64,000 nt of DNA from Glandiceps talaboti (taxonomy: Eukaryota > Hemichordata > Enteropneusta > Spengelidae), in the NCBI RefSeq assembly GCF_964340395.1, contig NC_135561.1, forward strand, positions 8,699,732-8,763,731, written 5' to 3'. Of this stretch, positions 7,101 through 34,100 are shown piece after piece. The first letter of the stretch is position 1. Each line of letters starts with the position of its first letter. The position numbers and the translations under genes are program-made. Under the pieces are notes generated by a model that saw nothing but the letters and a program-made list of their open reading frames with translations, was not told the origin of the DNA and searched no databases.

Positions 7101-10100
7101 CGCAATGTAGACAGACTTACCTTTTAATTAAACAGACTATACCCCAGACAATAATACCAAGAAGTACTACAACTAGAGATGAGATAATAACCACATATAG
7201 GATACTCCATTCTGTGTGACAAAATAACATCAGATTACCGTTAATTAATGTATCACTTTACAGACAGGGGGGAAGAGTAGAGCCTTGTCAGCACCCTGGG
7301 TTCTTTGAATGTAACCCTTAGTTCCCACAGTAGGATTGGGAGTGAGGGTGGGGTGGGGGGGGTGGGGGTATGCTTTCCGAAGAAAAGTTTCCCTAACCTG
7401 GCTGAGGTGTATTCCATACTATCTATCTACTTGCATCTGCTCTAAAGCTTGTCCATATACTTAGAAGGAAACTTTCAATTTGATCACAATATTTGTAGTA
7501 CAAATACTAGTGTCTGAAACTCGATATCTGATTCTTTACAATTAACAGCATTGATGGGGATGGTGATATGCTGTAAAGTGTGCAGCTTTCAGGCTCAACA
7601 CATGACAGAAATTGTAAGCAAACTTTTGGGGTTTAGATTAAGTTCTATATCATGAAAACATTACATTATCCGAATCCTTTATTAATTGAGACTGTTGGTT
7701 AGTTGTCCAATATACATCAAGTGTTTACAACATCAAATTACCCTTTTTTATTTGTTTGATTTTATTGTCACATTTCACGCAAACACAAACAAGTCACCAC
7801 ATTACTTCTATCAATGTATTCCACACACACAGACAGGCCACCACTTACCACAATTAGTTTCACCATCACCAATGTAAACTTTGAAGAAGTTCTCCATCCA
7901 GAAACTTTCACATACACAGTGTTTAGTTTCTACATTACATGAACCATGGCCTGAACAGTCATTCTGACAAACTGAAAGAACAAACATAACATCTGACATC
8001 AACAATTCATCATTTTGATTCAATTTTGTTTGCAAAAACACCACACTCTGGTTCTAGTCCTCTTTAAAACAATATTTCAGACGTTTATATAAATTGGTCA
8101 ATATCATATTCCAGTTACCAACTCTACTCCAGTTTACAAAATAATCATCACACGAGGGCGCCCTAGTGAAAATGATGATCACATGGTTTTTATAGCGCAT
8201 GCCAATCATATGGCAATAACACATAGCAGTGTAACTAAAACAATTCCATGATTAAAAATATAATTATTTTACATGAAATGAGTAGAGAAATTTGAAATGA
8301 CTGACAGCACCATCAACATCAGAAATAAAATGCTGAGAAACAGCTACCCAGTATGTCCAAAGGAGGCATGTCATATTTACTGCAGATGTCAGGGCATTTT
8401 CATAAGCGGCATCTGAACAGCGCCATCTAGTGGTCACATTACATACTATGCTTTCGCTCTTTTTTATTCTTTCTGTTAACCTGAACTTGGGGGTGTATTT
8501 CTGAATCCCATTGGCATTTTGGTTAGACTGGATACACTATAGATTGCACAATAGATAAGTTCTATGTACAAGTCGACACACTTTAATAAACAAGTCTTAC
8601 TTTAAACTTACCAACTGTATCTACAAGTATGACATCGAGGTCTAATACTTGAGATTCTTTTCTTAGTTTCTGTTTGAGTTTGTTGACCATGGCGATTCCC
8701 TTGAGTACTTTTGTGGCATCAGGATTTAATACATAGAACTCTACTAAAACACTGAAAATATACACAAACATAAGATTTGGTATCTTTTGCTGAAAGATGA
8801 CTAATCGGTATAGAAAAATGCAAAAAAGACTGAAATCAACTAATTAAAACACCCGATATGAATCTGAATATCTCAGTTTGTCTGCCCTTTTAAGCTATTT
8901 ATTACAAAGACAATTTCATAAAGTGTTGTCCATAAAAACATTTTACACCAATTCAGTGTTTCTGTTATAGACAGTGAATAGATAAATTCTACCACAGTTC
9001 TCATGGTGTGTAACATACCAAAGTTGAAGTAAAAGTTATGCAAATGTATGCAAATTTAAATAGATATCTCCTCTCTGTTGTTGGTCATTTCAAAATCCCT
9101 TCATTATAATAATAGACAAACTCATGAACAAAAACCTGAAATTTACTGACACAACATGACAAGGTGTTTAAAATGTTCTTTTCATTTTCTTTCAACGTGC
9201 TACAGGAAATATTCTTTTTTTTTCATAATTTTTGTTTTTTACTTTCCACCTATTCATGTTGTAGTAAATGGGTTATTCAACTAATCACAACACTGTAATA
9301 TTTCCAATCAAGTTTACATGTATTTTTCAGAGTGCAAATATCAATGAAAAATAGTTTCAGTTCCAGATACTGTGGCTTTAACAAAACATATGACGGTCAA
9401 TTCAAAATTGAAGACTGAGCACCTGAAAATGTGATGTATGCCTGGCTTAGTGAAAATAATTGATATTGAGTTGAGCAATGAACACATCATGTGTACATCT
9501 TTATCTATATCTGCCAATCTTACCAGCCAAGTGGAGACTCCCTAACTGACTGGACTTTTGATATCTGACAATCTTACCTGCCAAGTGGAGACTCCCTAAC
9601 TTACTGGACTTTTGATATCTGACAATCTTACCCGTCAAGTCGAGACTCCCTAACTGACTGGACTTTGATATCAGCATCCATGACACCCAGTAGAACTGAT
9701 AATTGACGAATTAACGTATCCTAAGGTTAGGAGGCAAAACAAAAGATGAACAATGTCATTAAAATGATGAATTGATACAAATTAGAATGTAATGAACTAT
9801 TTATGTATATTTGGCTGTATAATGGGGATCTGGTAGGATAGAGGTTGCAATGTGAATGCTTTAATCCTATGTGCTTATAAAGGCTGCAATGGATTGTATG
9901 CTCCCCAGGGAGTTGAGGAAGTATAACATGCCATTGTGCTGCCATTGATCCATGCCAGGGGTAATAATTGTGAGGGCCTTGTGCTCTCGGGAGAAAAGGC
10001 ACATTATAAATTCACATAATTATTATTATTACTATTTTGTTCACAGTATATTGATACAAATAAATAAATTTGTTGAAGTTCCAGCATATTTACAAAATCT

Positions 10101-31100: not shown

Positions 31101-34100
31101 GGCAGTCTAACCTAGAGACTTGACTTTTAGTCTTTACAGTGGTTGCTTGAACAGCTGTTGAAGCTATAAGGGTTTGACTAGATTCATTTTTGCTTTTGAA
31201 GCATTTTTGAACCAATTTAAATACAAATCAGTGTTGATCACACCCCCCACCCCCCACCCCCACTCCCACCTCCACCAAGGTGGTTTCACATTGATTCAAC
31301 TGACTCAATTCAAACTGGTTTTAGTGTACCTGGGGACAGAAGAACCAACTATGGATTCAACTTCAAACCTATCAAAATACTCTGTGGGGATGGGGCTATT
31401 AGATGATAAATTGACTACTACAGGCACTACAGAATCATTGGTGATTACCCAGAAATACTGAAACTGTTTTGTCAATCATTGACAATAACATAATGAAAGA
31501 TTGTTATCCTTTCGAAACGACATTATTATCATCAATTTTGTTGACATGAGCATAAAATTCTTATTATGCAAAGTGATTTGCGACATTCATTAAATCTAGC
31601 TGGGTTTATCAAAAATTTACATTACACAGAAAATATTGTGGCTGATTAAAATCAGCACTATATCAAGTTTTTACCTTTTACCTTCAAACTTTATTATTAA
31701 GTTGTTTGACAAAAATACACAGAAAATCAGAAATGTTACATCACCAGTATGTGTGTGTGTATATATTAAATATAATGTCCCAACTAGTTTTAAAAAAAGT
31801 GAAGTGCCCTTTTATCAATGTTTGAAACGTATATGAATACACAATTTTTTTTTCTTTACAATAACCTTATCTGCCCCCCCCCCCCCCCCGACAATGACAA
31901 AATATGGTGGAATGAACATGAAACAAATTAGTATAAATTTTACAAAATCAACACTTCTATCTTTTAAAAGTTCCGACAACCAACAAAATATTCTGTATAA
32001 AAGATTAAAAAGAGGATATTTTTGCATCACAAAGTGTGAAAGACTTACCTATGCAAGAGTCTGAAGTAGGATCAAATTGATAACCATCAATACACTGACA
32101 TTGTAGTTGAAATCTTCCTTTCTTGCCATTTATGCGTATACATTCTTCATTATACCCACATGTAGTCGGGTCTTTGGGATTACATTCTTTATCATCATTA
32201 TCATCATCATCATCATTCAGATTCCTGGGCCACATGTCTGAACCTATTGAGATGGAAGGTAAGGGAAACATGTATTATCCATGTGAGATTACTAGCAAAA
32301 TTATATATTCAGATTCCTGGGCAACATCTCTGAACCTATTGAGATGGGAGGTAAGAGCAACATGTATTATGAATATGTGATCACTAGCAAGCTGAATATT
32401 CAGATTTCTGGGCCACATCTCTGAACCTATTGAGATGGGAGGTAAGAGCAACATGTATTATGAATATGTGATCACTAGCAAGCTGAATATTCAGATTTCT
32501 GGGCCACATCTCTGAACCTATTGAGATGATATGGGAGGTGAAAGCAACAAGTATTACGCATAATGAGATTACTAGCAAAACTGAATATTCAGATTTTGGG
32601 GCCATATCTCCAACTCTAATGAGAATAAAGAAAATATAGGCCAGGCAAAATGTGTTTTATAATATACCTCATGCTGTGAACTCGCGGTGGCAGACGACAT
32701 CGTCAGAAACTGCCATTTTGACCTGCTGTGAACGCGTGGTGGTCACGTGACCATGTAAAAGTTGATGGAACTATTTCCCTAGGGAAATAGTCATTCTATT
32801 TTCCTATCACGTGACTGATTCTAGTGAATCATGGCACAGCATTATCACTAGGTATATTATAAATTGATTTACTATTTGCAATGTGTCTATAGTTTGAAAC
32901 ACTTTGAATATGGACACATGTGGAAGATTTGCTCATAATGAATCAATCATTTACTGAGGTAATGCTAAATTGCACTTTAAGTTATACCTCCATGGACCAT
33001 GATAAAACTGAACATTCACCTATCTGAAGTCAAAACTGAATATCTGAATTAATGAAAACACATGAAATTTAATAATTCCAGCCGACACATAATAATCTAT
33101 ATTATCTCCATTATCAACATAACGCTTGGGTTTATGATTAAATCAACTCTCGTAGGATTTTGTGATGGTTGGGAACAATTTCACTATCTCATACATCGAC
33201 TATTCACTAAATATGGAGGAACAGACAAGGAAGACTATGAATTTCCATATAATAAATAAACTTAGGTAGTATACATGTATGGGATCCTAATCTTATTACT
33301 CAATGTTTATATGTTTATAAATATCAGTATATAACCTTATTTGGTCCAAAGGACACTGATATTGATAAACGTACTTTTTATCTAATATCAATTTGGGCTG
33401 TATATGATCCTCAATATATCATACAATGTTTATATACACGCAATTGTTAATATTATCATATTATATCCATATTTCTCACTTGATTTCAAGGACTTCATTA
33501 AAACTTTATCTGTTGATAGTATTCCAATTGAATTTTGTGTATGATATACTACATGTACATGTAAGTTAGTATGAATTACATGTACAGTGGTGTGGTGTGG
33601 CGTGGTGTGGCCTGGTGTGGTGTACTACAGTAAGTACTGCACTGTACTGTAAAGTGAACTGTTGTAATGTAATGTACATACATTGTACATGTACTACATT
33701 GTAATGCGATATAATGTAAGTACTGTACTGTACTGTACGGTGCTGTGCTGTACTGTACTGTACTGTACTATACTGTACTGTAATATAATATAATGTACTG
33801 TACTGCACTGCCCTACACTGCACTGTACTGTACTGTACTACATTGTATATGTACTGTACTGTAATAGAATATACATGTACTGTACTGTACTGTACTGTAC
33901 TGCACTGTACTGCACTGTACCATACTGTACTGCACCATACTGCACTGTACTGTACTGTACTGTACTGCACTGTACTGTACTGTACTACCAGATACAGTTT
34001 TGTACTGACAAGGCTACAAGTGTAAGTACACATATACATGTAGCTCTCTGTATGTAGCATGTAATTTCATGACATTTTGTGAGAAGAACTATCCAAGACA

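What the first reader, a model, noticed from the sequence alone, without database searches (positions are those of the whole stretch)
9511..32640. Recurrent tandem duplication of splice junctions within one gene
At exons 3, 11, 16 and 18 (and probably 9) the tandem-repeat unit in the neighbouring intron is not random DNA but the exon edge plus its own splice site: an acceptor at exon 3 and donors at the others. Units differ in sequence and length (91, 42, 42 and 54 bp), so these are independent events rather than one dispersed repeat. Either this genome has a process that starts minisatellites at exon-intron borders (for example slippage or break repair linked to splice-site DNA or R-loops), or junction arrays are kept because they modulate splicing. 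I know of no described system with this pattern repeated in one gene.
Basis: partly seen in the sequence, partly recalled or inferred. Interest (0 to 1): 0.9.

Follow-up and report, generated by a model that had tools for sequence, protein, structure and literature searches.

The report
Splice-junction minisatellites in one gene
In an acorn-worm gene related to KIAA0319L, five exon edges have been copied together with their splice sites into the neighbouring introns; the copies are likely harmless because the site touching the exon is predicted to be the one used, and events of this kind are already known in human genes.

Summary
The window holds a KIAA0319-like gene on the minus strand; an annotated Glandiceps talaboti protein is identical to my model from exon 4 to exon 23. 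Of 42 splice junctions tested, five have a strong copy of exon edge plus splice site in their own intron: acceptors of exons 3 and 9, donors of exons 11, 16 and 18. Exon 14 is a weak sixth; 36 show nothing convincing. The events look independent. Counting each duplication once, junction-spanning events exceed random placement in this gene (5 or 6 against 0.8 to 1.3 expected; nominal P below 0.0002 to 0.006, 0.01 to 0.03 under the strictest count), but a cruder window test shows no excess over introns, and the count is post hoc in one gene with no genome-wide test possible. Retention for splicing is not supported: donor copies are no more conserved than the rest of the unit, and all 13 decoys tested give a premature stop. 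It is not unprecedented: human CBS carries two junction-spanning tandem duplications. Best reading: ordinary local duplication in minisatellite-rich introns, tolerated because the exon-adjacent site stays intact. Unexplained: five unrelated arrays share the period 42 bp.

The parts
3963..40040 (-). KIAA0319-like gene, exons e2 to e23 (exon 1 not located)
   Evidence: Phase-consistent model, Pfam KIAA0319_N and K319L-like_PKD, identical annotated protein from e4 on, PDB KIAA0319L chains E 7e-102
32215..32610 (-). 91/92/95-bp acceptor-junction array upstream of and into exon 3 (29 exonic nt)
   Evidence: (z 39)
32049..32243 (-). Exon 3
   Evidence: model only, not in the annotated protein
18994..19043 (-). 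Copy of the exon 9 acceptor junction (28 intronic + 22 exonic nt, 47 of 50 identical)
   Evidence: (z 29)
18795..18927 (-). Exon 9
14286..15635 (-). Exon 11 donor array: 21 units of 42 bp and 6 of 64 bp, 25 donor-like copies besides the true donor
   Evidence: (z 43)
15585..15739 (-). Exon 11
10745..10886 (-). Exon 16 donor array, 42 bp, 3.4 copies, 6 exonic nt
   Evidence: (z 19)
10881..11019 (-). Exon 16
9507..9672 (-). Exon 18 donor array, 54 bp, 3.1 copies, 41 exonic nt
   Evidence: (z 34)
9632..9720 (-). Exon 18
12705..12730 (-). Weak copy of the exon 14 acceptor edge (22 of 26 nt)
   Evidence: z 5.2
13480..14066 (-). 21-bp array in intron 12 resembling the interior of exon 12 (and of exon 16); not junction-spanning
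   Evidence: 18 of 20 nt, z 7.1; exon 16 z 6.2; exon 12 donor itself z 1.2

Best explanation
Five independent local duplications (possibly a sixth) each copied an exon edge with its splice site into the adjoining intron of an acorn-worm KIAA0319-like gene, and they likely arose as ordinary slippage or microhomology duplications that were tolerated because the splice site touching the exon stayed intact. Shown: the copies, their units, the gene model, and that using a copy instead of the exon-adjacent site gives a premature stop in the 13 cases tested. Inferred: a break or slip between short repeats made each first duplicate; later slippage or unequal exchange grew three of them into donor arrays and one into an acceptor array. 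The spliceosome is predicted to keep using the exon-adjacent copy, so the extra copies would leave with the intron. Duplications inside exons would be purged, which leaves introns and borders as the places where they persist.
For: Junction copies at 5 of 42 junctions with z 19-43. The introns carry many other tandem duplications with no exon content, and exon interiors are nearly free of them (1.8% of 2,398 windows against 11.3% of 29,360 intron windows). The five 42-bp units are unrelated to one another. 13 of 13 decoys tested give a premature stop, and the annotated protein uses the exon-adjacent sites of exons 9, 11, 16 and 18. Human KIAA0319L aligns across the exon 9 and exon 11 borders as spliced that way. 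Donor nine-mers in the exon 11 units are not more conserved than other columns (p 0.48 and 0.46), and 2 of 3 exon-16 copies lost GT.
Against: Border-spanning events exceed random placement (5 or 6 against 0.8-1.3), which plain chance does not predict and which the survival argument alone does not explain. 25 copies of the exon 11 donor are as strong as or stronger than the true one and an upstream acceptor-like site at 32615 scores above the exon 3 acceptor (8.2 against 4.9), so decoys might be used. The annotated protein starts in exon 4, so exon 3 splicing has no outside support. Microhomology at the edges was read by eye without a control.
Confidence: 0.7

Rival explanations
1. Border-seeded minisatellites: the genome has a mutational bias that starts duplications at exon-intron borders, for example through CAG or GT microhomology of splice sites or transcription-linked breaks.
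For: 5 or 6 border-spanning events against 0.8-1.3 expected (P below 0.0002 to 0.006; strictest 0.014-0.032); the unit edge at exon 16 lies 6 nt from the border.
Against: Post hoc, one gene; no excess in the window-level test (5 of 41 against 11.3%); 34 of 42 junctions at or below z 1.6; at least 7 sequence-distinct events in the same gene have no border.
Confidence: 0.15
2. Functional decoy arrays: the copies are kept because they bind U1 or act as unproductive splice sites that lower or tune expression.
For: 25 donor-like copies in the exon 11 array, against one per 278 nt in other intron sequence; decoy use would give a premature stop in 13 of 13 tested, as unproductive splicing needs.
Against: Donor columns not more conserved than others (low power because the units are very alike); 2 of 3 exon-16 copies lost GT; no RNA evidence available.
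Confidence: 0.08
3. Intron birth: tandem duplication of exonic AGGT segments created these introns.
For: Units contain exon plus splice sites, as in the tandem-duplication model (PMC4974935, passages).
Against: Intron 16 has the phase (1) and domain-end place of introns 10, 12 and 14, and intron 11 the phase (0) and, by eye, nearly the place of intron 15 in sister PKD repeats that carry no such array, so the introns look older. Other introns were not tested.
Confidence: 0.04
4. Assembly artefact: collapsed or expanded repeats.
For: None found; long reads were not available.
Against: Units differ by substitutions and two unit types are interspersed; the identical protein comes from a 24.6-Mb contig.
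Confidence: 0.03

Closest known systems
Human CBS 844_845ins68 and 31-bp VNTR c.1444_1467+7 (PMC2630376, passages; PMC1334203, passages)
   Different: Two events, not five; polymorphism and splicing were studied there, here neither could be.
Internal tandem repeats at exon-intron boundaries of human genes in segmental duplications (PMC2812944, passages)
   Same: Minisatellites (about 30-bp units) at borders; 27 intron modifications after manual check.
   Different: There tied to recent paralogs and new introns; here one single-locus gene whose introns look older than the arrays.
Intron gain by tandem duplication across a boundary, potato RdRp (PMC4974935, passages)
   Same: The duplicate crosses intron end and exon start, like exons 3 and 9 here.
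   Different: There a new intron is spliced; here no sign of a new intron.
C. elegans CeRep25B minisatellite near alternative splicing (PMC4039745, passages)
   Same: Intronic minisatellite linked to splicing.
   Different: A dispersed family with regulatory motifs, not copies of the exon's own border.
Interferon-induced 6-16 (IFI6) minisatellite with several splice donors (recalled; search listing only)
   Same: Recalled: a minisatellite at an exon end that supplies donors.
   Different: Recalled: shorter unit and shown use of donors; no paper read here.

Membership tests
Junction-spanning tandem duplication (CBS type) | Repeat unit contains exon edge plus its own splice site | tested here: met
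   5 of 42 junctions, z 19-43
Junction-spanning tandem duplication (CBS type) | One copy (exon-adjacent) is spliced and gives normal mRNA | not testable with these tools
   No RNA data; the annotated protein and frame fit it
Junction-spanning tandem duplication (CBS type) | Copy number varies between individuals | not testable with these tools
   Only one sequence at hand
Intron gain by tandem duplication | The intron is new and made by the duplication | tested here: inconclusive
   Introns 11 and 16 have counterparts of equal phase in sister PKD repeats (position by eye), which argues against; introns 2, 8 and 18 not tested
Introner-like dispersed element | Units at different introns are related in sequence | tested here: not met
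   10 of 10 pairs of the five 42-bp units not above shuffles; other units not aligned pairwise
Splicing-regulatory minisatellite | Splice-site positions under selection in the copies | tested here: not met
   Exon 11 array only, p 0.48 (21 units) and 0.46 (6 units); low power

The most novel reading that the evidence does not exclude
This genome has a mutational bias that seeds minisatellites at exon-intron borders, using the splice-site motif itself as microhomology and often a 42-bp unit, so that introns grow outward from their own splice sites and collect shadow splice sites.
Probability: 0.13. Interest if true: 0.75.

Novelty: new member of a known kind. Interest (0 to 1): 0.37.

Why it matters
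If the excess at borders held genome-wide, it would point to a route by which introns lengthen and acquire cryptic splice sites, testable in one assembly with RNA-seq. As a single gene it is a clear natural set of duplicated splice sites, useful for asking how the spliceosome picks one donor among 26 near-identical ones.

Tried and rejected
Selection on donor columns in the exon 11 array: none seen. Dispersed repeat family: rejected for the five 42-bp units. Exon origin of five other arrays (introns 2, 4, 7, 8, 14): best z 2.4, rejected. That exon 9 is a full-length 88-bp tandem copy: the 38 nt after the 50-bp match do not align to exon 9 above shuffles (P 0.16), so only the 50-bp piece is claimed. 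Rfam: 0 matches in the window. Other genes in the rest of the window as a control set: 10 ORFs gave 0 Pfam hits; not every ORF was tried. A rule of whole helical turns (10.5 bp) for unit lengths: 42 and 21 fit, 38, 54, 59, 88 and 91 do not (reading only). R-loops were not tested. One search failed on a wrong tag and was redone. Literature: 10 searches; some searches looked for border-spanning minisatellites, and their listings showed no paper on border-seeded minisatellites; for only 15 of 65 papers were listed. PMC4329672 was opened and its two hits were reference-list entries only.

Rows dropped before counting: one search listed 26 cluster rows within the gene; 17 were kept as 14 events, 9 dropped as weak or beside short-period repeats. 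One search adds those 9 back as 8 events. One search dropped one junction of 42 (exon 19 acceptor) for low complexity. The '5 of 10 with period 42' count leaves out the 21-bp array, the two spaced pairs in intron 9 and the exon 14 pair (offset 72); with the last it is 5 of 11.

Full report
Identity. The window carries, on the minus strand, a gene with the KIAA0319 N-terminal domain and five K319L-like PKD stretches. I built exons 2 to 23 from splice sites and phase; exon 1 was not located. The PKD region matches KIAA0319L chains in the PDB (best E 7e-102). The protein database holds a protein of the hemichordate Glandiceps talaboti (P0016) that is identical to the model over its whole 965 aa, from a Met inside exon 4 to the stop. 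Exons 2 and 3 rest on my model only; a search with residues 1-270 found no relative but P0016 (1 of 163 candidates).

Observation. TRF and direct reading confirm the arrays. For 42 junctions (exon 2 donor to exon 23 acceptor) I aligned 40 nt before to 30 nt after each border to the junction's own intron, up to 1.5 kb, against 200 shuffles. Five stand far out: exon 11 donor z 43, exon 3 acceptor 39, exon 18 donor 34, exon 9 acceptor 29, exon 16 donor 19. Exon 14 acceptor follows at 5.2 (22 of 26 nt), two others reach 3.3-3.4 with short matches, and 34 of 42 lie at or below 1.6. The exonic part of the repeat is 29 nt (exon 3), 22 (exon 9), 51 (exon 11), 6 (exon 16) and 41 (exon 18). A further 21-bp array in intron 12 resembles the interior of exon 12 (18 of 20 nt, z 7.1) and nearly as well exon 16 (z 6.2); it does not span the exon 12 donor (z 1.2).

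More than chance? Each copy is. Whether borders are favoured depends on the null. At window level, 5 of 41 junction-centred 40-mers have a copy of at least 28/40 within 1.5 kb, against 11.3% of 29,360 intron windows and 1.8% of 2,398 exon-interior windows: no excess over introns. That null counts every copy in an array. Counting each duplication once by its unit and forbidding exon-internal placement, 14 events give 6 spanning (0.85 and 0.96 expected; P 0 of 6,000 and 0.0002), 13 give 5 (0.80 and 0.90; P 0.0008 and 0.0012), and the 8 arrays picked as TRF-detectable give 4 (0.38 and 0.50; P 0.0002 and 0.001). Adding back the 8 events that I had left out gives P 0.0003-0.0057; refusing exon 16 as well leaves 4 against 1.0-1.24, P 0.014-0.032. 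This is suggestive but post hoc and one gene.

Function. With a matrix from the gene's own sites, the exon 11 array holds 25 donor-like copies scoring at or above the true donor (24 equal, 1 higher), against one site of score 5 or more per 278 nt in other intron sequence. Exons 9 and 18 also have strong copies. At exon 3 the copies score 3.0 against 4.9 for the assigned acceptor, and a site at 32615 scores 8.2. Exon 16 copies read CAG|TTGAGT, CAG|ATGAGT and CAG|GTGAGC, two of them dead. If a copy were used, 13 of 13 cases tested give a premature stop: 3 of the 25 at exon 11 (the other 22 would share the same first added bases and so, by inference, the same stop), 1 at exon 16, 3 at exon 18, 4 at exon 3, 1 at exon 9, 1 at exon 14. 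The donor nine-mer in the exon 11 units does not vary significantly less than other columns (0.33 against 0.76 minor bases per column in 21 units, p 0.48; 0 against 0.16 in 6 units, p 0.46); the direction is towards conservation but the power is low. Human KIAA0319L aligns across the exon 9 border and the exon 11 border as joined at the exon-adjacent sites, so those sites are predicted to be the productive ones.

Mechanism. I commit to ordinary local duplication followed by array growth, in introns already rich in such events; copies at borders survive because the exon-adjacent site is left whole. Short repeats at the edges (AACCAG at exon 16, GATAT at exon 18, CAG within the exon 11 unit) fit slippage or microhomology repair, but I read these by eye and ran no control. 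The introns look older than the arrays: intron 16 has the phase and domain-end place of introns 10, 12 and 14, and intron 11 the phase and nearly the place (by eye, within a few residues) of intron 15.

What is known. [quoted passage not shown] PMC1334203, passages). The passage of PMC2630376 calls the duplicated sites of intron 7 'splice donor sites'; at an intron 7/exon 8 junction I read them as acceptors. Human genes in segmental duplications show tandem repeats at exon-intron boundaries (PMC2812944, passages). A potato gene gained an intron by duplication across a boundary (PMC4974935, passages). A C. elegans minisatellite is enriched near genes with several splicing decisions (PMC4039745, passages). 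The IFI6 minisatellite is recalled, not read. So the kind is known; five in one gene is the unusual part.

Unexplained. Five unrelated tandem duplications in this gene share the period 42 bp (exon 11, exon 16, introns 4, 7 and, weakly, 8): 5 of 10 kept events with period 25-100 (5 of 11 with the exon 14 pair). Post hoc odds after correcting for the choice of period are 7e-6 to 4e-4, depending on the assumed background. This is statistically stronger than the border excess and was not part of the finding.

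Noticed in passing
14286-15635, 10745-10886, 27713-28115, about 21520-21625, 19421-19499: Five sequence-unrelated tandem duplications in one gene share the period 42 bp (the last one weakly), and a 21-bp array lies at 13480-14066.
   Followed up: partly
13480-14066: The intron 12 array of 21-bp units resembles the coding stretch for TLKVTDT in exon 12 and the matching stretch in exon 16.
   Followed up: partly
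17482-18743: Spaced direct repeats in intron 9 with offsets of about 774-803 and 616 bp, not tandem.
   Followed up: no
2472-2799: A 29/58-bp minisatellite just beyond the last exon of the gene.
   Followed up: no
5530-6134: Plus-strand ORFs in intron 22 look by eye like a decayed non-LTR retrotransposon; no Pfam hit.
   Followed up: partly
32613-32615 and exon 3: The annotated protein starts inside exon 4 and leaves out exons 2 and 3; an upstream acceptor-like site scores above the exon 3 acceptor and would give a stop, so transcripts with an interrupted exon 3, or a plain annotation fault, could explain the short model.
   Followed up: no
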